From Clavaria fumosa (lineage: Eukaryota > Basidiomycota > Agaricomycetes > Agaricales > Clavariaceae), in NCBI GenBank assembly GCA_951802425.1, contig OX637794.1, positions 1,984,001 through 2,048,000 on the forward strand: a DNA stretch of 64,000 nt. Reading direction: 5' to 3'. The notes under the pieces are model-generated. The model was not told where the DNA came from and did no database searches. It worked only from the letters and a program-made list of their open reading frames with translations. Shown here one piece after another: positions 8,080 to 58,641 of this stretch. The first letter of the stretch is position 1; every line of letters begins with the position of its first letter. A program made the position numbers and the translations under genes.

Positions 8080-8238
8080 TTTTTTTTTTCCCAAGCTGCA
8101 TTATCCTCACCTCGCAGGCCTCACTGCCATTGCAGCACCTCACTCCAATGTTAAGTAAGAAAAGTGACCACACAGGGAATTGAACCCAGGACCTCCCAGA
8201 TTCATGATGGGTGCTCTTAACCACTGAGCTATATGGTC
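8080..8238 (-). mobile_element. tRNA-derived SINE-like unit
   Basis: Positions 8166-8238 (minus) read as a 73-nt tRNA-like head. It has a 7-bp acceptor stem (GACCATA with TGTGGTC, one G-T pair), a D arm GCTC/GAGC with an A-box (TAGCTCAGTGG) and a T arm with a B-box (GGTTCAATTCC). The anticodon arm is faulty: position 33 is A, not T, and the closing pair is mismatched. A ~75-bp body follows, then an A-run (GGGAAAAAAAAAGG, minus strand, ending near 8080). Head, body and A-tail are the plan of a tRNA-derived SINE. A decayed tRNA gene is the alternative. I found no clear target duplication. Confidence 0.6.
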
Positions 8239-41254: not shown

Positions 41255-43848
41255 CAGTAGTACTGACTCAAATAATTAACTAGACACAGCAGTTAGGTAT
41301 AATTCATAGTGTAGTACTCTTTGCAGCTACAGCTGAACAAGGAATCCTTATGGTCAGTCAACTTGTCTAGTTAACTTGTCAAAGGTAGTACATGGGGGAC
41401 TAGTATACTAGATACAGCTGATAGCTGTGGATCTAGTGGACTAGTTACAGCTACTAGGTGTGGACCTGGTGGACTAGTTGCAGGTACTGGCTATGGGTCT
41501 AGTGAATTAGTTACAGCTGCTAGCTGTGGGTCCAGTGGACTAGTTACAGCTACCAGTTGTGGATCTAGTGGACTAGGTGCAGCAAGTAGGTGTAGGTCTA
41601 GTGGACTAGTTGCAGCTATTAGCTGTAGATGTAGTGAACTAGTTACAGCTAGTAGCTGTGGGCCTAGTGGACTAGTTGCAGCTACTAGCTGTAGATCTAG
41701 TGAACTAGTTACAGCTATTAGTTGTGGATGTAGTGAACTAGTTGCAGCTATTAGCTGTAGACATAGTGAACTAGTTACAGCTAGTAGGTGTGGATCTAGT
41801 GAACTAGTTGAAGCTACCAGCTGTGGACCTAGTGGACTAGTTACAGCTGCTAGCTGTGGGTCCAGTGGACTAATTACAGCTACCAGTTGTGGATCTAGTG
41901 GACTAGGTGCAGCAAGTAGGTGTAGGTCTAGTGGACTAGTTGCAGCTACTAGCTGTGGGCCTAGTGGACTAGTTGCAGTTACTAGCCGTAGATGTAGTGA
42001 ACTAGTTACAGCTATTAGTTGTAGATGTAGTGAACTAGTTGCAGCTAGTAGGTGTAGGTCTAGTAGACTAGTTGCAGCTATTAGCTGTAGATGTAGTGAA
42101 CTAGTTACAGCTAGTAGCTGTGGGTCTAGTGGACTAGTTGCAGCTACTAGCTGTAGATGTAGTGAACTAGTTACAGCTATTAGCTGTAGATGTAGTGAAC
42201 TAGTTGCAGCTAGTAGGTGTAGGTCTAGTAGACTAGTTGCAGCTAGTTGCTGTAGATCTAGTGAACTAGTTACAGCTATTAGCTTTAGATGTAATGAACT
42301 AGTTGCAGCTAGTTATTGTGGACCTAGTGGACTAGTGGCAGCTACCAGCTGTGGGTCTAGTGGACTAGTTACAGCCATTAGCTGTGGATCTAGTGAACTA
42401 GTTGCAGCTAGTTGCTGTAGATCTAGTGAACTAGTTACAGCTATTAGTTGTAGATGTAGTGAACTAGTTGCAGCTACTAGCTGTGGACCTAGTGGACTAG
42501 TTGCAGCTACTAGCTGTGGGTCTAGTCAGCTACTAGCTGTAGATCTGGTGAATTAGTTACAGCTACTAGCTGTGGATCTAGTGGACTAGTTGCAGCTAGT
42601 TGCTGTGGGTCTGGTAGACTAGTTACAGCTATTAGCTGTGGATCTAGTCAGTTAATGATGTAGATTCCTTGCAATAAATCATTGTAATTACAATAGGTGG
42701 CCATTGCAAGAATGACTGAACAAACAATAGCAAACAAAATATGCTAAAAATTAAAACAAAAACTCGAAATTGAGCAGCCCTGTGCCTGGTCCCTTGGGTA
42801 CAGGTTACCAACCAGGCATAGCTGCTTTTGGTAAGCTGCTATGACCATGGGAAAATTTTTGCATGACTTGCAAAATATGACTTTTTATACACCAAAAGAT
42901 CGGCAAAAATCAGGAGATTCTAGATCTGGACACCCCACATTTGTATCTGCCTTGGTTCAGTGTCAGTTTGCAAAATACACAGAAAATATTCATTTTTCTA
43001 CAATTCTGCAGTACTCTGGCTTGAAAATGGATAGGAGAGGATACACACACCTACACCCACTACCTGTTGAGATATGGGGAGGGTGTGGATTAGTTTAACA
43101 ACTCACCCACCATCTCTGTCACCTCCCTGGAATCCATTATTAGGAATTAGGGCAAGTGAGAAAACAGGAAGAGGCCGAAGCCGAAAGGGGGCGCACAAGT
43201 GAGGTGTTATTGGCCTGGGAGCATGGCTATTTGTTATATTGCAAATTCCAGCCATCAGACTACACCTTATGACATCTAATACAATCATACAAAACCCCAT
43301 AATATTTGGTGCAGAACTACAGATTCCCCATGTCTATTTTCCCAAATTTCTCAAAATCTCTCCCCAGATAGCCTCCTTTGTCAAATCACATATTCCTGTT
43401 AGCAAGTAGCTGACAATGTATACATGAAGACATGTTTAAAGTTTGGTGAAGTTAGGCCAAGTTCTCAGGAAGATAGCCCAGAATGTGTCTTTGGGAGGAC
43501 AGTCTAAAGTGAGAGCAAAGATGAAGGCAAGGTTAAGGAAGACCTTGACTGTCCTCCCAAAGACACATTCTGGGCTATCTTCCTGAGAACTTGGCCTAAC
43601 TTCACCAAACTTTAAACATGTCTTCATGTATACATTGTCAGCTACTTGCTAACAGGAATATGTGATTTGACAAAGGAGGCTATCTGGGGAGAGATTTTGA
43701 GAAATTTGGGAAAATAGACATGGGGAATCTGTAGTTCTGCACCAAATATTATGGGGTTTTGTATGATTGTATTAGATGTCATAAGGTGTAGTCTGATGGC
43801 TGGAATTTGCAATATAACAAATAGCCATGCTCCCAGGCCAATAACACC
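41255..43848. mobile_element. Second foldback copy P2, right arm truncated
   Basis: Begins CAGTAGTACTGA like P1 and runs through outer sequence, a 33-bp array (41400-42655), inner arm, centre (about 43526) and the start of the right arm. It stops at 43848, where the sequence becomes part of the antisense gene of element L. The right array and outer arm are absent and there is no matching duplication. The left arm holds a 52-bp piece of that same gene (43153-43204), inserted into otherwise continuous P sequence and in inverted orientation to the copy at 43849-43900. Confidence 0.87.
41400..42655 (+). repeat. 33-bp minisatellite array of P2 (about 38 units)
   Basis: Same 33-bp unit as in P1 with both dyads, more diverged. 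Not coding. Confidence 0.9.
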
Positions 43849-43900
43849 TCACTTGTGCGCCCCCTTTCGGCTTCGGCCTCTTCCTGTTTTCTCACTTGCT
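43153..43900. repeat. Palindrome of P2 that includes captured gene sequence
   Basis: Inverted arms of about 350 bp around a ~40-bp loop. The outermost 52 bp of both arms derive from the antisense gene of element L, not from P. Symmetry ends at 43153 on the left, where P sequence (AATTAGGG) resumes, and at about 43900 on the right, where the gene continues. Confidence 0.85.
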
Positions 43901-44222
43901 CAGTGATCCACTTGTCCCCGCAGAGCCTTCGCCACTTCTTGAGCCTTCGCACGATGAGGATGAGTCCCTCGTCCACTTCCATGTCATCGTTGATTGCGGC
44001 AATGTAGCCGGCAAGAAAATCGTTCTAAAACCTTGTCAGTCCGATGTGAAAAGGAAAGAAAGAAACTTGTTCACGCACCGCGTCACCCGCGTATGTCCTC
44101 ACCCACTCCACGTATTCACCATCCTGTCCCCCTTCCGGCAACTCGTCACCCGGAGCCATCATCTGTGCCTCCTCCATCGCCTGGATTGTGTGTTGGAAGA
44201 TAATGGCATTGAAACTTTCCAT
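43849..44222 (-). pseudogene. Antisense Zn-cluster gene of element L, 5' part only
   Basis: Exon 1 (44079-44222, 48 codons, MESFNAIIFQ) and the start of exon 2 (from 44024: NDFLAGYIAA, then VRRLKKWRRL) match the complete copy at 52669-54090, with the same 144-nt first exon and the same GT-AG intron position (44025-44078). The codon at the site mutated in that copy is still CGA here. The rest is lost to P2. It lies 161 bp from LTR L, the same arrangement as in elements I and K. Confidence 0.82.
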
Positions 44223-45322: not shown

Positions 45323-46213
45323 TGTAAGGATAATACCTGGTTTAAACAAGGAAACTTAACAGATATCAACTATCTGGATATTTTGGGATTCAAGGCAATT
45401 ACATCCGATACAATCCGATAACCATCCAACACTGCCCAATAACATCCGAAAAACGTCCAATACTTATCCGACATTGGACTCTCCGGTCTCCGATCCCTCG
45501 TGATGATCACAGCCCGCAGGTCATACACACCGCCCACACCTCCCTATTTCATCACTCCAGCATGGTCAGCACTCGACACACTCATCATTCCATTCCCCTT
45601 CCTTTATTTCATATTCCATGCTGTAAATTTCATATTGTGATCCCTTTCAACCATCCAATCATTTAAACGTTTCAAACCCTTTGCAGTGCTTTGCCCATTG
45701 TTCCTAGTACTCCTTTGCTGTACCAGCCACACTTTCCTTCATTTTACAAGCGGTCCGGACATGTGTTGGTCATTGGACATTTCATCCCTCTGAACCGCAT
45801 GACTCATTTATGAATTATGGCCCCTATATGACCTTGTGCATGATACCGCATTGCCTTCTGTAGCTTCTGGAGATTTCTGTAGAATCGGGTTTGCTGTACT
45901 TAGAAAAATGTACTTAAGTATGTACTGGACTCTAGGGAAATTCAGCTTTTTGAATGCCTGCATTGTGCTGTGATCTTTAGCAAGCTCACCCTTCATCGTC
46001 GCCAGCCTCTCGAACCTTCGATCCGAACATCGGACTCTACCGAATCCGATACCGGACACTCCGGACAACATATATTTTCATTCTCTGGACATTTTACACT
46101 CAGCCTCTACATCATCCAAGGTTCTGTCTAGTGTCTACGTCGTGTAACAAGACCCCCTGAAGAACCTGGCCGCGAACATCTATTTGCAGCCAACACCTGT
46201 ACAGCCTACTACA
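45323..46213 (+). repeat. 5' LTR of element I
   Basis: TGTAAGG...CTACTACA, 891 bp. It lacks 27 bp present in the 3' LTR. Confidence 0.88.
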
Positions 46214-46240
46214 ATTTTGGAGCCCACCGCGAGGGGGTCG
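46214..46240 (+). promoter_or_regulatory. Possible tRNA primer-binding site of element I
   Basis: Four bases after the LTR the sequence reads TGGAGCCCACCGCGAGGGGG. A TGG start with a GC-rich 3' extension is what a tRNA 3' end would pair with. The exact tRNA was not identified. Confidence 0.4.
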
Positions 46241-46593
46241 TAACAACGTCTTCACTACAGCCTTTGAGAATTCCCAGAGGCTCCTCCGCTTTCCAGCCTC
46301 AACACTCCGAAGGCCTGAGAACTCGAAACCCAAATCCGATCACAGAAGCACCACATTCCGGACCTCCTGGAGAAGTAATTGAAACTTCCCACTTTCTTCC
46401 ATTGGACATTCCCAGTACTTCATCCATTGTTTACTCCCACACGAGCTTCGCCACCCCGGTTACCACATTACCACAGATCTTCGAAGAACTGCTTACACCA
46501 CTCCCCCTTGAATCGAGCATCCTTCACTTCCCTCCAGAAGCGCCCCAGAATTCACTGGACGACATTTACTTACCACCCCACGCACCAATACAA

Positions 46594-48540
46594 ATGGCTA
46601 ATCAACCAAGATATCCGCTCCGTGGCACTCACGGAGCCCCTGCCTTCAATGGAGTTCCGACACACCTCAATCGGTACTTCGAGGACATTGACATCGTACT
46701 CACCGGCATTAATCCAGACGTCCCAGAACCCGATTTAATTCGGTATGCAAAGCATTACCTCGACACCAATACATGTCTTCTCTGGGAGACTCTCACACCC
46801 GACCCGCATCCGGAATGGACTTGGGATACCTTCAAAGCGGCCGTCCGACGTCTTTATCCAGGTTCCGATGGTGGCCGTTTGTTTTCTGTCGCCGATTTGG
46901 ACCGTTTCATATCAGACTTGGCCCAAAAAGGAGTTTACACACGCACAGAACACGGAGAGTATTACCGGGACTTTCTTCGGATCACCTCGCATTTGATCAG
47001 CTCACAGCGCATGTCTACAAATGATAGGAACCGGCTTTACATCCTCGGATTTGGGGATCATACAAGGCGCCGGATCGAGAGCCAGCTCACTATTATACTT
47101 CCGAATCACCATCTGGAGGACCCATACCCGATGAATGAGGTTCACGCCGCAGCCGAATTCTTACTCTCCTCAACGTCCCCGCACTCCATGACAACCGATC
47201 AATTCTCCGGACCCATCCGATTCACATCCGCAGCCCCTGGGAGGGAACCGAAACCAGTAATCAAGAAGGAAGAACTTGACATGTCTGCGGCCTTGGCAAC
47301 ATTTGCTTCTACAATGGCTTGCCTGGAGTCAATTTTATCAGCACAGTCTCTCGAACCAGCAAAACATTCTGCTCCTTGGACCACAAATTCCCCTACAAAT
47401 CGGACATGTAACTTCTGTTCGGAACTAGGTCATTTTGTTAGTGCTTGTCCGAAGGCCCTCGAATACATCAAGTCCGGTAAATGTATACAGAACACTGAAG
47501 GCAGGATTTGCCTTCCCTCCGGACGATACTTGCCCGGCACCATTGTGGGGAACAACCTATCAGAGTGCTTTGATAAGTACTATGCCACTTACCAATCCCA
47601 GAATACGCAGCCAGCGACTACCACGGTATTTGAAGCACAGCCTACCGGATCATCTGGTGATCCCGCGGATATGGAAGACAATTCAGACAAAGAAGATGGC
47701 GAGAGGATCACCCTGGAAAATATGGCTTGCACATTCGCGAATGATGTGGCAAAGAAAATAGACAAGGGCAAAAGGAAAGTGCCCGCACCCCGAAATAATG
47801 ATCCACAGCCATCTAGGTTATCTCCTCCACCTGCTGTTGTCATTACGCCGACCCAGGTTACTCGTCCATCGAAGCAGGAAAGAATCGAAAGACCTGACGT
47901 CCAGTATCATTACCAAGCTCCCATCGAGAATCCAGTAACCATTCAACAAGTCTTTGATCGTGCACTCGACATCCCGGTCCATGTGACACCTCGGGAACTA
48001 CTTGCCATTTCCGGAGATGTCCGCAAAAAGATGAAGGATATGGTTACCGCCCGCCGTGTTCTGGTCACCGCTTCTGTCGTACAGGATATGCTCTACACAA
48101 ACATTACGGCCCCGGATACCTCCGATCTCGTTGTGGCAGTCGATGCCGCTCTGCTCTGCATCGTAGAAAGCATTTTGGATGGTCGGATCAGCGCGGAGTG
48201 CCTTCTCGACCAGGGAAGCTCAATTGTAGCAATGCGGCGGGACATTTGGGAGAAACTCGGCAATCCAATACACTCCAAGCACGTTATTCATATGGAATCC
48301 TCTCACGGCACCATCGCTCCGACACTCAGACTTATCAAGAATTTCCCTTTACAGATCAGTCTGTGCACATTCCATGTTCAAATGCAAGTGGCAGACACGC
48401 TGCCTTGCGAGGTTCTCGTCGGACGACCGTTCTTTATGCTAACCGGCTCTCAGACAATTGACCATCCCCATGGGGCCCAGGACCTCATTCTAAACAATCC
48501 GAACACTGGAGAACGAATCATAGTGCCTACAAGAGAGTGA
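46594..48540 (+). CDS. Gag-protease of element I
   Basis: The frame is open from 46264, but the first ATG is at 46594 (MANQPRYPLRG), a start typical for this group, giving about 648 codons. A gag domain follows (FNGVPTHLNRYFEDID, then WETLTPDPHPEWTWDTF, then RRLYPGS). A zinc knuckle CNFCSELGHFVSAC lies near residue 275, then a Lys/Pro-rich linker. A protease-like region near the C-terminus has CLLDQGSSIVAM, with DQG in place of the usual DSG/DTG. The 110 open codons before the ATG have no Met. The frame ends at TGA 48538 and pol continues in the -1 frame as a separate ORF. Confidence 0.85.
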   Translation: MANQPRYPLRGTHGAPAFNGVPTHLNRYFEDIDIVLTGINPDVPEPDLIRYAKHYLDTNTCLLWETLTPDPHPEWTWDTFKAAVRRLYPGSDGGRLFSVADLDRFISDLAQKGVYTRTEHGEYYRDFLRITSHLISSQRMSTNDRNRLYILGFGDHTRRRIESQLTIILPNHHLEDPYPMNEVHAAAEFLLSSTSPHSMTTDQFSGPIRFTSAAPGREPKPVIKKEELDMSAALATFASTMACLESILSAQSLEPAKHSAPWTTNSPTNRTCNFCSELGHFVSACPKALEYIKSGKCIQNTEGRICLPSGRYLPGTIVGNNLSECFDKYYATYQSQNTQPATTTVFEAQPTGSSGDPADMEDNSDKEDGERITLENMACTFANDVAKKIDKGKRKVPAPRNNDPQPSRLSPPPAVVITPTQVTRPSKQERIERPDVQYHYQAPIENPVTIQQVFDRALDIPVHVTPRELLAISGDVRKKMKDMVTARRVLVTASVVQDMLYTNITAPDTSDLVVAVDAALLCIVESILDGRISAECLLDQGSSIVAMRRDIWEKLGNPIHSKHVIHMESSHGTIAPTLRLIKNFPLQISLCTFHVQMQVADTLPCEVLVGRPFFMLTGSQTIDHPHGAQDLILNNPNTGERIIVPTRE

Positions 48541-48590
48541 ATCCCAATCTGTAAAACCTTGAAGAATAAGAAACCGCATCCGGATTTTTG

Positions 48591-51500
48591 ATGGCTGGAG
48601 CCTCGAATATCTGCAAACCCACAGACTCACCTCCAATCAATGCGGACATGGAAACTATACACAAATACAAGACTCCAGCCATCTTCTCCACTTCCATTCA
48701 GAATTCCTCATCGTCTTCCTTTGTAAATTTAGCCCCTCTTGATCCCCTTCCTCATATCAGAGTCTCAGATGTTTCTCTCCATTCTGTTGATTCCCCGGTC
48801 ACTGTCAGATGTGAACTGACGCATCCAAATGTGGTATACCCCTTGTACAACAAAACTTCCAAAATGAATTTTCCATCCACAGACGCCGTCTTGCCAGTTT
48901 ACCTAGGAAAGAAATATAAGAAAGTGGCGAATCGTATCAATCCGATCAAAGCGATAGTACCTGAAGAATTCCGGATTGTTTGACGCCGGCATCCGGACCC
49001 CCTAGCCGATATACCGATTCTTCCAACACACCCCCCCGATTTCACACCCGGTCACCGATATACTCAAGACCGGAAAAATGTGCATAATGCAAACCCCACT
49101 GGATTCTTATGGCCAGAAGAAGAAAAACTCGTTCACAATCTTATTAAAATCCAGGAAGATGCCTTCGCTTGGATGGAGACCAAAAAAGGACGATTCGACG
49201 CAAAATACTTCGATCCGATTATCATCCCAACAGTCGAACATGTTCCCTGGATCTTCAAAAATATACCGATTCCTCCCAGCATCTACGATGAAGTCCTGAA
49301 GGTTATCCGAGAAAAGATTGCGGCTGGAGTCTACGAAGAGTCCAACTCTTCTTATCGGTCCCAATGGTTTTGTGTGTTAAAGAAGGACGGAAAGTCTCTC
49401 TGACTTGTACATAACCTCCAGCCATTGAACAAAGTCACCATCGGCGACTCCGCAGTTCCCCCAATAATGGAGGTTTTTGCAGAATCATTTGCCAGACGCG
49501 GATGCTACGGATCACTCGACTTATTCATCTCCTTCGATCAGCGATCTCTCGACGAGCGAAGTCGAGACCTTACCACATTTCAAACCCCTCTCGGAGCCAA
49601 ACGGCTCACTTGCATCCTGATGGGATACACCAACGCGATGCAAATTATGCATGGAGACGTCACGCACATCCTGCAGGATGAAATTCCGCATGTAACCATT
49701 CCATTTGTGGATGATGTAGCGATTAAGGGCCCGGAAACCCGATATGAGCTTCTGGACAGCACTTACAAGATGATCCCGGAGAATCTGCAAATACGGCGGT
49801 TCGTTTGGGAGCACTTGAATAATGTTAACAGGGTCCTCCAACGGATCAAGAAAGTTGGAGGAACCTTTAATGGCAAGAAAACGACAATCTGCACACCCGA
49901 AACAATCATTACCGGACACATGTGCACATATCAGGGGTGAGTTCCGGATGCCTCCAATGTTCAGCGTATCCGAGACTGGCCTCCGTGCGAAACGCTTACC
50001 GATGTCCGATCATTTTTAGGTGTTTGCAGACTGCTCCGGATGTTCATTAAAAACTACGCCGTACTTGCCCGACCACTCATAAGTCTAACTCACAAAGACA
50101 TTCCATTTAAATTTGAAGAAGAAGAGCAAAATTCGATGGACCGACTTAAAGACACAATAATCAACTCATCCGCCGTTCAACTGATTGATTACCGCTCTGG
50201 ACGGCCCGTGATTATGGCCATTGATTCGTCTAACATCGCTGTTGGCTTTGCGCTATTTCAAATCGGAGAAGATGGAATCTGGTACCCATCTAGGTTCAGT
50301 TTGATAACCTGGAATGAACGCGAGGCCCGATACTCTCAAGTGAAAATCGAGTTATACGGACTGTTTCGTGCCCTTCGGTCGTACCAGATTTACCTTGTCG
50401 GCCTTCAGAGATTCACCGTCGAAATGGACGCCAAATTTATTAAGGGTATGCTAAACAATCTGGACATTCAACCAAACGCCACCATGAATTGATGGATTGC
50501 CAGTATACTACTTTTCGATTTCGACCTTGTTCACATCCCTGCAAATAAACATACCAGAGCCAATGGATTATCATGCCGATGTGCCGCAGATGGTGAGGAA
50601 GACACCAAGTCCGAAGATCATGAAGAGTGGATTGATCAGAGCTACGTGTTTGCCATGGAACACATGAATCGAGCACCAGAATCTTACTACCCATCCGAGG
50701 TGCGCCTCCCTGGTATTGCTCACACCGGCCTCAAGGTTTACACAGGATCCACGCTATATAACTCCACCAAATCATCTGACAACTCACCCACCCCGAAGAT
50801 TTCCCCAGAAATCTCTATCCCCCAATCTGATGCCACGAACAAACGAGAGCAACATATCCATAACATTGAGTTCTTCCTCCGGAACCCAACGCAAACTTTG
50901 GATTTGGATTCCACACAGCTCCGTCGTCTAATCCGATTGGCATCCGACTTTTTCATTTTAGATAACAAACTCTGGTGTTGTCGCCCCAATGGATGTCATC
51001 AACTTGTACCGCCAGATCACAAATGGCTCGGAATTATTACCAAAGCACATGACTCTCTAGGACACAAAGGGATCTTTGTCATCCGGAGCCAGCTTCTCAA
51101 CCGATTTTGGTGGCCAATGCTTGATCAAGACGTCAAAGGGTTTGTTCGGACATGTCATCAGTGTCAGACACAACAGATCTGAAAAATATTTATCCCTCCC
51201 ACGGTCGCAACCCCGGCTGGACTATTCTGCTGTGTTCATATCGATACTATGTTCCTCCCCAGAGCTCGCGGTTACAGGCTTTTCGTACATGCGCGCTGCT
51301 CGCTATCCGCATATCCCGAAGGACGACCGCTACGAAACGAAACCACTAAATTGATCGGCACCTTCATTTTTGAGGACATCCTCTGCCAATGGGGAGCGGT
51401 AGAATAGCTCATCACGGACAATGGAGCACCTTTTATCAAAGCACTCGACTTCCTCGGAAAACGCTATGGAATTCATCATATTCGCATTTCGGGATACAAT

Positions 51501-52449
51501 TCTTGTGCCAATGGGGTGATTGAACGTGCCCACCACTCGGTTCGCGAATCACTCATCAAAGCTGCAAATGGTGACGAATTGAAGTGGCCCGATGTCACAC
51601 CCTCAGTCATGTGGGCCGAACGGACCACGATACAATGGTCCACCGGTCATTCCCTATTTTTCATCACTCACGGCGTTGAACCACTTTTCCCCTTTGACAT
51701 AGCTGAAGCAACCTATCTAATCCTGACAACGACAATGACAACGACGGCAACGACGGCAACGGTCCACCAGTCATTCCCCATTTTTCATCGCTCACAGCGT
51801 TGAACCACTTTTCCCCTTTGACATAGCTGAAGCAACCTATCTAATCCCCACAGCCGACACTCCGATGACAACGCCCGAGTTAATTGCTCTTCGCACCCGA
51901 CAACTTCAAAAATGAGAGGAAGACCTCACAACGATTGCTGATAAAGTTCTTGCTGCCCGAAAACAATCCGTCAAACAATTTATCAATAGCCACTGGAACG
52001 CAATTATCGACTACGACTTTAAACCCAGATCCCTGGTGCTGATCCGGAACTCAGCCATCGAAATGGAACTAAACTGGAAGACAAAGCCCCAATTTTTCGG
52101 TCCGATGGTAGTTGTCCGCCGAACTCAATACAGTGCTTATATTTTATCGGAGCTTGATGGCACCATGTCCAAGATTCGATACGCAGCATTCCACATCATC
52201 CCATACTACCCTCAAGCTCATACTTCAATCCTGATTACCTCCATCATCAATCCTGACAAAGAAGAGAAGGATATCGATGTACCTGTTGAACAATACAAGG
52301 CATCAGAGACTATAACTGAAGCCGATCAAAACCCCGATCAACTCGCTTCACTATCTGACGAATCCGATAATGAAGCTACTGACACCGACGCCCCAGAAAG
52401 TCGTCCGCAACCCCCCGGAGCGACCCGAAAACTCCGGCCTCGCCATTGA
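48591..52449 (+). pseudogene. Pol of element I, few stops
   Basis: One frame from the ATG at 48591 to TGA 52447, interrupted by stops at 48981, 49401, 49938, 50490 and 51180 (all TGA, where arginine is expected, e.g. IV-stop-RRHPD, SL-stop-LVHN, MN-stop-WIAS), TAG near 51404, and a TGA near 51913 where element K has Trp. Domains: reverse transcriptase with FVDDVAIKGP (near 49710), RNase H (AIDSSNIAVGFAL), integrase zinc finger (LGHKG, then CHQCQTQQ), DDE core (HIDTMFLP, TDNGAPF, then the Glu) and a C-terminal region ending RKLRPRH. A ~135-bp duplication with a GACAACGAC-like run lies at 51640-51850. No chromodomain seen. Confidence 0.88.
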
Positions 52450-52668: not shown

Positions 52669-54090
52669 TTACATACTCGACGGCTCACCAAGGAGAAGGA
52701 CCCGGAGCAGTTCCGCTCCGGCCTTCACCTGATCTGCCCCCCTCTCCATCGTCTGCAGCACCTGCTCCAGCGCCTCCCTCACGGACGATCCCGTCACCGG
52801 CTCCCACTCCTTACCCTTCCAGCTCGGACCCGCCTCTGCCCTCTTCCGCTTTGCTGGCAGCTCCACCACCTCCACGCTCTCCTCATCCTCGATCTCGTCC
52901 TCCTCCTCCTCCTCCGGTGTCATCTCCTCGCGAACCGGTGCCCACGTCGCACCCCGCCTCAGCCTCTTGCTGCCACTTGCCTCCACCGCCTTTGGACCTA
53001 CTCCACCACGTTAGCCAACACGGATCTGGTAATTCCTCAACTTACCCTCAACCCCGGACACTGGCGCCTTCTCTGACTTCATCCCTGAAAACTCACCTAT
53101 TATTTATCCCACCACGGAAAGTTACCATTATCACTTACCTCGCACAGCTGACAAACTACACGACACCTTATACGTCCGGCACCACCAGCACGCCACCCCT
53201 TCCACTCCATAACACGCACACTGCTTCCGGGCGCACTCCTCACAAACCAGATCGTGGTCCTACTCACCGGATCAGACACCTAAAAATTTCACACATTCTA
53301 ATCAACGACTTACCTTATCTCCAGGCTGCCGTGCAGCCCGGGACTTAATGTCGGCTCCCGCTCCACCCCTCCTCCCCCGCTTCCGCCTATCTATATCTCC
53401 CCTCGTGATCTCCACCCACACCGGCATCGCCGTCATCCGCCCGCCCGCCCGATGCTCCAACACGGGGGGTGGCACCGCACTCACTGCTGCTGCCTCGATA
53501 ACACTGACGGGCGTCACTCCGTCGGTTCCCCACACGGTCCAATGACCGTCCCGATCCTCCGCCCCTGTCATCGTTGTTGCCACTGCCGCCACCCCGCCGT
53601 CGTCGTCGCTGCCACTGATCACGATAAGGCGCGCCCTCTTCTCGGCAGCCCTCGCCGCTTCTGTCCGCCTCTCCTCTGCCTCCGCCTCCGCTGCGGCCCT
53701 CTCTGCGGCTGCCCTCTCCTTGCTCATGCGTCTCTTTTCGGCCTCGGCCTCCTCCTGCTTTCTCGCCTGCTTGGCGATCCACTTGTCCCCACGAAGCCTT
53801 CACCACTTCTTGAGCCTTCGCACGACAAGGACAAGTCCCTCGTCCACTTCCCTGTCATTGTCAATTGCAGCAACATAGCCAGCAAGAAAATCGTTCTAAA
53901 ACCTTGTCAGTGTGATGTGAAAAAGAAAGAAAGATACACCACGCACAGCATCGCCCCCATACATCTGCACCCACTCCGCGTACTCACCATCCTGCCCCCG
54001 TTCCGGTAATTCTTCACCCAGCGCCATGGTCCGTGCCTCTATCATCGCCTGGACCGCGTTTTGGAAGAGTAGGGAATTGAAGTTTTCCAT
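52669..54090 (-). CDS. Antisense Zn2Cys6-like gene carried by element I (one TGA)
   Basis: Five exons on the minus strand: 54090-53947, 53895-53314, 53259-53139, 53084-53046 and 52997-52669, with GT-AG introns of 51, 54, 54 and 48 nt. The pieces sum to 1215 nt, exactly 405 codons. The protein begins MENFNSLLFQ and has an Ala/Glu/Arg-rich coiled coil in exon 2. Exon 3 has C-x2-C-x6-C-x7-C-x2-C-x6-C, the spacing of the fungal Zn2Cys6 binuclear cluster. The tail is acidic (EEEEEDEIEDEE), then KRKR, then a Leu-rich helix ending GEPSSM. One TGA (53800-53802) replaces the CGA kept in copy L. The gene sits between pol and the 3' LTR in I, K and L, always antisense. It could be a DNA-binding regulator, but this is inferred from Cys spacing only. 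Confidence 0.8.
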
Positions 54091-54248: not shown

Positions 54249-55166
54249 TGTAAGGATAATACGTGGTTTAAACAAGGAAACTTAACAGATATCAACTATC
54301 TGGATATTTTGGGATTCAAGGCAATTACGTCTGATACAATCCGATAACAATCCGACACCACCCGATAACATCTGAAAAATGTCCGATACTTATCTGACAT
54401 CGGACTCTCCAGTCTCCGATCCCTCATGATGATCACAGCCCACAGGTCATACACACCGCCCACACCTCCCTATTTCATCACTCCAGCATGGTCAGCGCTC
54501 AACACACTCATCATTCCATTCCCCTTCCTTTATTTCATATTCCATGCTGTAAATTTCATATTGTGATCCCTTTCAACCATCCAATCATTTAAACGTTTCA
54601 AACCCTTTGCAGTGCTTTGCCCATTGTTCCTAGTACCCCTTTGCTGTACCAGCCACACTTTCCTTCATTTTACGAGTGGTCCGGACATGTGTTGGTCATC
54701 GGACATTTCATCCCTCCGAACCGCATGACTCATTTATGAATTATGGCCCCTATATGACCTTGTGCACAATACCGCATTGCCTTCTGTAGCTTCCAGAGAT
54801 TTCCGTAGAATCGGGTTTGCTGTACTTAGAAAAATTTACTTAAGTATGTACCGGACTCTAGGGAAATTCAGCTTTTTGAACACCTGCATTGTGCTGTGAT
54901 CTTTAGCAAGCTCACCCTTCATCGTACCTATTGATCCACTGGCCTTCGTCGTCGCTGGCCTCTCGAACCTTCGATCCGAACATCGGACTCTACCGAATCC
55001 GATACTGGACACTCCGGACAATGTATATTTTCATTCTCTGGACATTTTACACTCAGCCTCTACATCATCCAAGGTTCTGTCTAGTGTCTATGTCGTGTAA
55101 CAAGACCCCCTGAAGAACCCGGCCATGAACATCTATTTGCAGCCAACACCTGTACAGCCTACTACA
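54249..55166 (+). repeat. 3' LTR of element I
   Basis: 918 bp, TGTAAGG...CTACTACA. The 158 bp before it (54091-54248) is the 5' flank of the antisense gene, holding a TTGTTTGGTTGCAACCAAGG dyad region conserved in L and K; it may be that gene's promoter. Confidence 0.88.
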
Positions 55167-57136: not shown

Positions 57137-58641
57137 TTACATGGTTAAGGGCTCACCAAGGAGAAGCATCCGGAGCAGCTCGGCTCCGGCCTTCACCTGA
57201 TCAGCCCCCCTTTCCATCATCTGGAGCGCCTGCTCCAGCACCTCTCTTGTGGACGACCCTGCCACTGTCTCTCGCTCCTTACCCTTCCGACTCAGACCTG
57301 CCTCTGCTTTCTTTCACTTTGCCAGCGGCTCCACCATCTCCACACTATCATCATCCTCGATCTCATCCTCTTCCTCCTCCTCCGGGGTCGTCTCTTCATG
57401 GACTGGTGCCCGCGTTGCACCTCACCTCAGCCTCTTGCTCCCGGTCGCCTCTGTTGCCTTCGGACACCGCCACCTTCTCAGCTTTCACTCCTGAAACACA
57501 CCTATCAGATTGTTTCAACACAGAAATAAAAAGAATATTACTTACCTCGTACAGCCAAGAGACTGCACAACACCTTGTAGGTCCGGCACCACCAACATGC
57601 CACTCCTTCTACCCCATAACACAAGTGCCGTTTCCAGGTGCACACCTCGCAGGCCGGCTTGTGTTCCTATTTTCCAGATCAGAAACCTAAGCTTCAAACT
57701 CCTCATTTGACCACTTACCTTGTCCCCAGGCTGTTGCGCAGCCCGGACCTCGATGTCCGCCCCCACTCCGATCCTCCTCCCTCGCCCTCACCCCTCCGTC
57801 GCCCGTTTCTCAATTTCGGCGCATACCAGCAAATTGCGGAACGTCACCGTCATCTGCCCGTCAACCCAATGCTTCAGTACAGGGCGCACCTCAACCACCG
57901 GATAGCGCGCCCCGACCTTCGCACTGGTCGCCCCCGTCTTGATGACACCAACAGGCGTTACCCCGTCGGTTCCCCACACGGTCCGGCCACCGTCTTGATC
58001 GCCCTCTGCGGCCCCTGCCTTGCCAACGGCACCCGTCTCCAGATCCATCTCCTTGCTCAAACCCGGCTCCAAAACGACCATCGGACCCGTCGCGGTCATG
58101 GTCACTGCTGCTGCACCGACAGCTGGCGCAGTTGTTGCTGTTGCTGCTGTTGCTGCTTCTGCTGCAGCCCCCTCTCCCTCTTCCTCATTGTCCTCGCTCC
58201 CGACGATCTGATGTGCCCAGGCGAGTCGCGCCCTCTTCTCGGCAGCCCTCGCCGCCTCCGTCCGCCTCTCCTCTGCTGTGGCCCTCTTTTGGCTTCGGCC
58301 TCCCCCTGTTTTCTCACCCACTCGGCAGTCCATTCTTCCCCACGGATTTTTCGCCACTTCCTCAACCTTCATGCCACGGGGACGAGCCCCTCATCAATAT
58401 CCACATCTTCCTCAAGGGCTGCCACATATCCAGCAAGAAAATCATCCTGAAATGCTGTGTCAGTGCATTGCCAGATTTGAGAAACTGGTTCACGCACCGT
58501 GTCACCCATGTATGCCCTCACCCACTCCACATATTCACCATCCTGTCCCCGTTCCAGCAACTTGTCACCCGGAGCCATCGTTCGTGCCTCTTCCATCATC
58601 TGGATCATGCGTTGAAAGATAACACCGTCGAAATTTTCCAT
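57137..58641 (-). pseudogene. Antisense Zn-cluster gene of element K, decayed
   Basis: Same structure as the copy in I. Exon 1 is 58498-58641 (144 nt, MENFDGVIFQ) and exon 2 begins at 58446 (DDFLAGYVAA). The Cys-rich exon (about 57543-57665) keeps the six conserved cysteines (ACEVC, HLC, ACWWC, VLC) but lacks the extra one seen in I. The end is GEPLTM. TGA stands for arginine near 58378, and exon 2 is frameshifted around 58290. A CAG/CTG-type run near 58130-58175 encodes alternating Ala/Thr or Gln depending on frame. Intron sites are conserved with I, so splicing was under selection or recently inherited. Confidence 0.75.

What the first reader, a model, noticed from the sequence alone, without database searches (positions are those of the whole stretch)
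52669..54090. A retrotransposon family that carries an antisense, five-exon Zn2Cys6-like gene
Between pol and the 3' LTR of element I, on the opposite strand, lies a gene whose five exons sum to exactly 405 codons. The same gene stands at the same place and orientation in elements K (57137-58641) and L (43849-44222), with identical first-exon length (144 nt) and conserved intron sites. Exon 3 has six cysteines spaced C-x2-C-x6-C-x7-C-x2-C-x6-C, the Zn2Cys6 pattern of fungal regulators. Introns survive because the gene is antisense to the genomic RNA, so reverse transcription does not remove them. Carriage of a putative regulator by an LTR element is unusual; antisense ORFs are known in some plant Ty3 elements (Ogre/Retand type), but I know of none with this content in fungi.
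Basis: partly seen in the sequence, partly recalled or inferred. Interest (0 to 1): 0.92.

Follow-up and report, generated by a model that had tools for sequence, protein, structure and literature searches.

The report
Retrotransposons carrying an antisense regulator gene
A fungal genome holds at least three families of retrotransposons that carry, on the strand opposite to their own genes, a gene for a zinc-cluster-like protein of the kind fungi use to switch genes on and off, which may be how these elements control themselves.

Summary
The finding holds and reaches further. The window gene (52669-54090, minus) has the exons claimed (405 codons) but carries an in-frame stop. It lies between pol and the 3' LTR of a Ty3/gypsy element. 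Genome-wide, 133 of 145 exon-3 matches have pol opposite and downstream. Two young copies read whole are intact; two others, picked for lacking exon 3, have deletions. The frame is under purifying selection (median dN/dS 0.27, 78 pairs; other frames 0.41-1.29), splice sites are kept (GT 74/74, AG 71/74) and six cysteines are invariant in 19 copies. A predicted exon-3 model hits only Zn2Cys6 proteins (24 of 24, all weak). Two further Ty3/gypsy families, with chromodomain pols, carry an antisense gene with similar six-cysteine spacing at the same place. The LTR end beside the gene is rich in CGG; in family 1 it forms a helically phased array (0 of 2000 shuffles), altered in some copies. Best reading: an element-encoded nuclear regulator of its own LTR. 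Expression, zinc binding and DNA binding are untested. Antisense extra genes are known (plants; Boty brtn); this content was not found in print.

The parts
53947..54090 (-). antisense gene of element I, exon 1 (144 nt, ATG at 54090)
   Evidence: 144 nt in 18 of 19 aligned copies, absent in the other, L033
53314..53895 (-). exon 2 (582 nt): Glu/Ala/Arg-rich stretch and a conserved TVWGTDGVTP motif; in-frame stop at 53800-53802
53139..53259 (-). exon 3 (121 nt): six-cysteine Zn2Cys6-like domain
53046..53084 (-). exon 4 (39 nt)
52669..52997 (-). exon 5 (329 nt): basic stretches that look like nuclear signals, acidic stretch, conserved leucine-rich C-terminus (by eye), stop
53896..53946 (-). intron 1 (51 nt, GT-AG)
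53260..53313 (-). intron 2 (54 nt, GT-AG)
53085..53138 (-). intron 3 (54 nt, GT-AG)
52998..53045 (-). intron 4 (48 nt, GT-AG)
45323..46213 (+). 5' LTR of element I
   Evidence: 92.6% identical to the 3' LTR over 920 columns
54249..55166 (+). 3' LTR of element I
46132..48540 (+). gag-type ORF of element I with a CCHC motif (by eye) and an aspartic-protease-like end (802 aa stop to stop; begins inside the LTR)
   Evidence: in the young counterpart Asp_protease_2 scores 21.2 bits, under its cut-off of 24.3
48570..52449 (+). pol of element I (RT, RNase H, integrase), interrupted by stops
   Evidence: young counterpart is one 1287-aa frame
54331..54397 (-). array of TATCGGA-like units, 10-11 bp apart, in the 3' LTR next to the gene
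45405..45471 (-). the same array in the 5' LTR
57137..58641 (-). antisense gene of element K: introns 1-3 kept, intron 4 lost, exon 2 frame-shifted
43849..44222 (-). antisense gene fragment of element L: exon 1, intron 1, part of exon 2

Best explanation
At least three Ty3/gypsy families of this fungus carry an accessory gene on the strand opposite to gag-pol, between pol and the 3' LTR. Shown by sequence for family 1: it is coding, under purifying selection, has four introns with kept splice signals, and is present beside 131 of 139 pol matches, among them a young burst. Inferred: it is transcribed from the 3' LTR end; its product enters the nucleus, pairs through helices, binds CGG-type sites in the LTR through a Zn2Cys6-like domain, and regulates transcription of the element (its own antisense promoter, the sense promoter, or both) in trans. 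Because the introns are antisense to the genomic RNA they survive reverse transcription.
For: Linkage 133 of 145, 16 of 25 in family 2, 75 of 104 in family 3 with 0 on the wrong side. dN/dS median 0.27 over 78 pairs of 13 copies; exon 1 0.19, exon 3 0.18. Other frames 0.41-1.29. Introns diverge nearly like third positions (0.318 against 0.369; first and second 0.19). Splice sites kept. Six invariant Cys. Model of exon 3: mean pLDDT 69.9, one short helix at each CxxC; the 24 Foldseek hits are all Zn2Cys6 proteins. Family 3: intronless antisense frame with a six-Cys pattern found where it was looked for, modelled as two long helices around a small Cys domain. TATCGGA array; in L029 six CGG in a 10/11-bp chain, 0 of 2000 shuffles. 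CGG excess on the gene strand of the LTR end: P 0.004 and 0.022 (families 1, 2), 0.020 (family 3).
Against: No transcript data. Foldseek hits all have E of 0.46 or more. Zn_clus is matched by 15 of 15 members, but the window copy scores 15.4 bits against a cut-off of 21, and two whole family-1 proteins give no Zn_clus hit at E 1. hhalign of families 1+2 against family 3 aligns all six Cys but at probability 7.7%. The CGG windows were chosen after seeing the sequence and differ in length (170, 170, 97 bp); over the whole family-1 LTR both CGG and CCG are in excess and TCGG is not (8 against 5.5, P 0.156); two other 130-bp windows of the element hold 6 TCGG against 7 in the array. The array is altered in K, has one unit missing in L020, is partly gone in L010 and L015 and interrupted in L022. 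Family 2 shows no phasing. Binding and nuclear entry were not tested. Two young copies lost most of the gene while keeping the pol frame and a near-identical 3' LTR, which fits a trans-acting factor but also a dispensable one.
Confidence: 0.6

Rival explanations
1. The protein is made and is nuclear, but serves integration or nuclear import of the pre-integration complex (target-site choice, chromatin tethering) rather than transcription.
For: PMC7264820 (passages read) discusses such roles for plant antisense genes; DNA-binding-type domain and long helices.
Against: Does not explain the phased CGG array in the LTR. Family 2 already has a chromodomain at the end of pol, and family 3 resembles it there.
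Confidence: 0.22
2. The gene acts mainly on host genes, as a captured or half-domesticated regulator.
For: Zn2Cys6 domains are common in fungal regulators (recalled); 12 of 145 exon-3 matches have no matching pol nearby.
Against: Three of the 12 belong to family 2, whose pol the query would not find, and three have the young family's identical exon-3 score; the rest were not read. No close homologue apart from the element families came up. None of the 16 host Zn_clus matches is at an exon-3 position.
Confidence: 0.1
3. Only the antisense RNA matters (double-stranded RNA or interference); the reading frame is incidental.
For: Antisense transcripts of retroelements may silence (discussed in PMC7264820).
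Against: dN/dS 0.27 in this frame and conserved introns.
Confidence: 0.05
4. Gene-model artefact: a GC-rich stretch open by chance, or selection on a sense ORF.
For: Sense-strand ORFs over 200 aa overlap it in the window; one mirrored sense frame has dN/dS 0.41, and another sense frame has only 32 stops in 4235 codons.
Against: The 0.41 frame carries 50 stops in 4225 codons and is the mirror register of the gene frame; the frame with 32 stops has dN/dS 1.29. Splice sites and the six Cys fit the antisense reading.
Confidence: 0.02

Closest known systems
[quoted passage not shown] review PMC7264820, passages read)
   Same: Position, orientation, presence in most copies, constraint of the same order as pol.
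   Different: Plants. The passages report no clear similarity to other proteins, apart from an SMC domain (PvRetro13) and a transposase-28 domain (Retand), and nuclear location for the Grande product; the words 'zinc' and 'intron' do not occur in the text.
brtn of Boty-like elements in Botrytis cinerea (Zhao et al. 2011, Virology; only seen as cited in passages of PMC7264820, PMC8365987, PMC4227169, PMC5987419)
   Same: Fungal LTR element with an additional antisense gene; PMC4227169 gives its gag-pol a CHROMO domain, as in family 2.
HBZ of HTLV-1 (titles and abstract starts seen)
   Same: Antisense, spliced, started in the 3' LTR, encodes a regulator: a working analogy.
   Different: bZIP factor of a retrovirus; no bZIP found here; for the fungal gene transcription start and regulation are untested.
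Fungal Zn2Cys6 regulators (Gal4, Put3, Ppr1, Hap1, Leu3, Pho7, AlcR)
   Same: Six-Cys spacing and predicted two-helix fold.
   Different: Carried by retrotransposons in many copies; no other regulator domain found by Pfam in two whole proteins; below Pfam's cut-off.

Membership tests
Antisense additional gene (aORF-3R) of LTR retrotransposons | lies between pol and 3' LTR, opposite strand | tested here: met
   family 2; family 3, with the LTR edge inferred
Antisense additional gene (aORF-3R) of LTR retrotransposons | present in most copies | tested here: met
   131 of 139 pol matches are partner of an exon-3 match, 8 are not
Antisense additional gene (aORF-3R) of LTR retrotransposons | conserved about as well as other element genes | tested here: met
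   median dN/dS 0.27 against 0.11-0.21 for pol in nine comparisons; two more, 0.04-0.05, have saturated dS. The gene is somewhat less constrained than pol
Antisense additional gene (aORF-3R) of LTR retrotransposons | transcribed | not testable with these tools
   no RNA data
Zn2Cys6 binuclear cluster domain | C-x2-C-x6-C-x(5-12)-C-x2-C-x(6-8)-C | tested here: met
   (consensus recalled)
Zn2Cys6 binuclear cluster domain | fold | tested here: inconclusive
   24 of 24 hits are Zn2Cys6 proteins but best E is 0.46; model pLDDT 69.9
Zn2Cys6 binuclear cluster domain | Pfam PF00172 curated cut-off | tested here: not met
   15.4 bits against 21 for the window copy; 14.8 for family 3. Hence called Zn2Cys6-like
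Zn2Cys6 binuclear cluster domain | binds two zinc ions and DNA | not testable with these tools
   -
HBZ-type antisense retroviral regulators | bZIP domain | tested here: not met
   Pfam scan of two proteins shows none
HBZ-type antisense retroviral regulators | transcript begins in 3' LTR and is spliced | not testable with these tools
   splice signals only
Boty brtn | sequence homology to BRTN | not tested
   BRTN sequence not met in any collection used

The most novel reading that the evidence does not exclude
Ty3/gypsy elements of mushroom-forming fungi commonly carry their own antisense-coded Zn2Cys6 regulators, kept through the divergence of a chromodomain and a non-chromodomain lineage. 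Each family pairs its protein with CGG arrays in the U3 end of its LTR, forming an element-specific feedback circuit driven from the 3' LTR: a fungal counterpart, by convergence, of retroviral antisense regulators, and a hidden source of many 'Zn(2)-C6' proteins in mushroom annotations.
Probability: 0.42. Interest if true: 0.9.

Novelty: new variant of a known kind. Interest (0 to 1): 0.78.

Why it matters
The role of antisense extra genes in LTR retrotransposons is an open question, in part because most of their products resemble nothing known (PMC7264820, passages). Here the product has a recognisable DNA-binding-type domain, and the LTR shows a candidate site, so the question can be tested with one protein and one DNA fragment. 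It could also mean that part of the Zn2Cys6 gene count in mushroom genomes is transposon cargo, and that mobile elements can supply spliced regulators.

Tried and rejected
Permuted domain: the one PDB sequence hit (GAL4, E 3.9) aligned the two halves in swapped order. A test with an HMM of five host Zn2Cys6 sequences (the other 11 of 16 host loci gave no match to my pattern and were left out) was undecided: of ten element sequences five scored higher in native order and five with halves swapped, among these both of family 2. Foldseek, which aligns in chain order, matched the family-1 window copy over 26-48 columns, so I dropped the idea for family 1; for family 2 it stays open.

A 10-bp palindrome and an 18-bp inverted repeat between the polypurine tract and the gene start are partly conserved (seen by eye); I did not pursue them because CGG is not in excess in that leader.

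Capture from a host gene: no close homologue apart from the element families in this genome. Relatives elsewhere: protein searches gave only 3, 5 and 13 hits, from sources without organism names; other fungal genomes are not held, so spread across fungi is untested.

Pol without the gene: of the eight pol matches without an exon-3 partner three were read. Two are deletion copies (L058, L059). The third, a related pol (C4:3682560, L057), shows no such gene near its end and runs into a decayed family-3 element.

Family 2's gene model is unfinished: the frame changes after the Cys exon in both copies read (L036, L037). Foldseek was not run on the family-3 model.

Paper searches for this content; none of their listings (titles and abstract starts) shows it. 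Subscription papers are mostly outside that library.

Full report
Setting. The window is C1:1984001-2048000 of a 48.76-Mb genome in 17 contigs.

The observation. In element I the five exons on the minus strand are 144, 582, 121, 39 and 329 nt, 405 codons with the stop. Introns are 51, 54, 54 and 48 nt, all GT-AG. One stop, TGA at 53800-53802, interrupts exon 2, so this copy is damaged; its pol also carries stops and its LTRs are 92.6% identical. K is frame-shifted and lacks intron 4, and L is a fragment.

The gene belongs to the element. A search with an exon-3 peptide gave 145 matches in the genome, 140 of them below E 1e-8. A piece of the pol C-terminus gave 139. Of the 145, 133 have pol on the opposite strand, downstream, 126 of these within 0.8-1.3 kb; pol on the same strand within 6 kb occurs once, and on the wrong side twice. 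Eight of 139 pol matches are not partner of an exon-3 match. Three of these eight were read: two young copies with deletions of 640 bp and about 0.9 kb inside the gene, and a related pol with no such gene near its end.

It is kept by young elements. Thirty-nine exon-3 matches have one identical score. Thirty-three pol matches sit in a 1287-aa open frame. In the listed part of an exon-2 search (168 matches, list cut), 34 match over the full 231 residues at 97% or more with no stop. The gene was read in four young copies: L029 and L030 have an intact 440-aa gene; L058 and L059, picked because they lacked exon 3, have the deletions. L029 has LTRs identical over the 798 nt held, a gag frame of 807 aa and a pol frame of 1287 aa, stop to stop. 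L031, from a divergent subfamily, also seems open up to its own stop.

Selection. Thirteen copies compared pairwise (78 pairs) give a median dN/dS of 0.27; by region 0.19 (exon 1), 0.17 (first part of exon 2), 0.45 (rest of exon 2), 0.18 (exon 3), 0.22 (exons 4-5) in eight representatives. The 13 were chosen by me from 19 aligned; nine near-identical subtelomeric copies and one double copy had been left out before. In ten copies the gene frame has mean 0.28 with 21 stops in 4235 codons, natural ends included. The other two frames of that strand give 1.27 and 1.08 (132 and 160 stops), the three pol-strand frames 1.29, 1.29 and 0.41 with 32, 69 and 50 stops; the 0.41 frame is the mirror register of the gene frame. 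Introns diverge at 0.318, third positions at 0.369, first and second at 0.19; leaving out CpG sites, introns (0.306) and third positions (0.328) stay well above first and second (0.171, 0.155). Pol against L029 gives 0.11-0.21 in nine comparisons and 0.04-0.05 in two where dS is saturated, so the gene is somewhat less constrained than pol. Donors are GT in 74 of 74 introns, acceptors AG in 71 of 74.

The domain. Six Cys are invariant in the 19 aligned copies; further Cys in the window copy are not. Some of these copies were found through exon 3 itself. Across families 1 and 2 the invariant columns are the six Cys, one Trp and one Lys. Zn_clus is matched by 15 of 15 members, best E 0.0035, but the window copy is under the curated cut-off; a zinc ribbon is matched by 2 members (best E 0.004) and an inhibitor family by 3. 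The PDB sequence search gave one hit, GAL4, at E 3.9. An AlphaFold2 model of the 40-residue piece has mean pLDDT 69.9 with helices 7-12 and 25-30. Foldseek lists 24 PDB chains with E up to 10. All are Zn2Cys6 proteins (for 1cld, Pho7 and CBF3 this is recalled, the rows do not say so), best E 0.46, best probability 0.87, TM-score by query 0.51-0.67. I therefore call it Zn2Cys6-like.

Other families. Family 2 (L036, L037, L039, L040) has LTR pieces 94.9 and 96.3% identical, RT, RNase H, integrase and a chromodomain. The part of its pol read in L036 and L037 is 21-23% identical to family 1, yet it has a gene with the same Cys spacing at the same place, 37% identical in the domain to the window copy, again with an intron just before the Cys exon by eye. 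Of 25 family-2 matches, 16 have that pol opposite and downstream (17 pol matches used). It holds an antisense, intronless frame of 328 aa from its first ATG, with C-x2-C-x6-C-x10-C-x2-C-x6-C (L061:692-1675). Its model (mean pLDDT 71.6, pTM 0.28) has long helices at 37-102 and 176-297 around a small Cys domain. Of 13 database relatives 12 are 60-72% identical and one 36%. Profile comparison of families 1+2 with family 3 pairs all six Cys, but at probability 7.7%, so common descent of the domain is likely to me, not shown.

The LTR. Next to the gene the LTR of family 1 carries TATCGGA-like units. Eleven LTRs were read for it (ten elements). Nine keep the 10/11-bp steps unbroken over at least six units, L020 has one unit missing, and K shows a step of 19; the count allows altered units. 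In the alignment, L010 and L015 have lost part of the array and L022 is interrupted; the L031-type copies were not held far enough to tell. In L029 six CGG form an unbroken 10/11-bp chain; 0 of 2000 dinucleotide shuffles reach it. CGG on the gene strand is in excess at the LTR end in family 1 (9 against 5.0 in 170 bp, P 0.004), family 2 (12 against 7.7 in 170 bp, P 0.022) and family 3 (9 against 5.2 in the 97 bp held, P 0.020). CCG is not in excess there, nor CGG in the leaders between LTR and gene. Against this: the windows were chosen after looking; the last 98 bp alone show no excess in family 1; CCG is in excess in the rest of the family-1 LTR (P 0.018); over the whole LTR TCGG is not in excess (P 0.156) and two other windows of the element come close to the array; family 2 shows no phasing. 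CGG as the half-site of Zn2Cys6 proteins is recalled knowledge.

How it may work. Shown: a conserved, intron-bearing antisense coding gene of the element. Inferred: transcription from the 3' LTR, nuclear entry (basic stretches KRPRR and PAKKKK), pairing by helices, binding to CGG sites in U3 and control of one or both promoters. A stretch like LIVVSDSDDE recalls a SUMO-interacting motif (recalled, untested).

What is known. [quoted passage not shown] PMC8365987, PMC4227169 and PMC5987419, passages). HBZ of HTLV-1 is a working analogy (titles and abstract starts). A Laccaria transposon survey and a chromovirus survey do not contain the words antisense or zinc. Nine paper searches listed no Zn2Cys6 antisense gene in a retrotransposon (listings only).

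Noticed in passing
window 43152-43504 and 43547-43899: Perfect 353-nt inverted repeat with a 42-nt spacer; the antisense gene fragment of element L runs into one arm.
   Followed up: partly
window 41301-42557: Over 30 units of a 33-nt tandem repeat with long open frames on both strands.
   Followed up: no
window 51633-51728 and 51757-51852: 96-nt segment duplicated (93%) inside the integrase region of element I.
   Followed up: no
L009-L019 (one copy each on C14, C13, C12, C11, C10, C7, C6, C5 and C1, two on C4): Eleven closely alike copies of one rearranged element, ten of them within about 190 kb of a contig end and one (C11) at about 290 kb; at least five have an inverted LTR directly before a truncated pol. 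Probably spread as subtelomeric duplications.
   Followed up: partly
L022:4459-4600: Sequence like a family-3 LTR sits inside the CGG array of a family-1 LTR, which also marks the family-3 LTR edge.
   Followed up: partly
L058:659-664, L059:775-800: Two young copies with internal deletions in the antisense gene and the pol frame open: a hint that the gene is not needed in cis, unless the deletions came after insertion.
   Followed up: partly
window 8164-8238: tRNA-Ser (TGA) gene, the only match at Rfam's gathering thresholds in the window.
   Followed up: no
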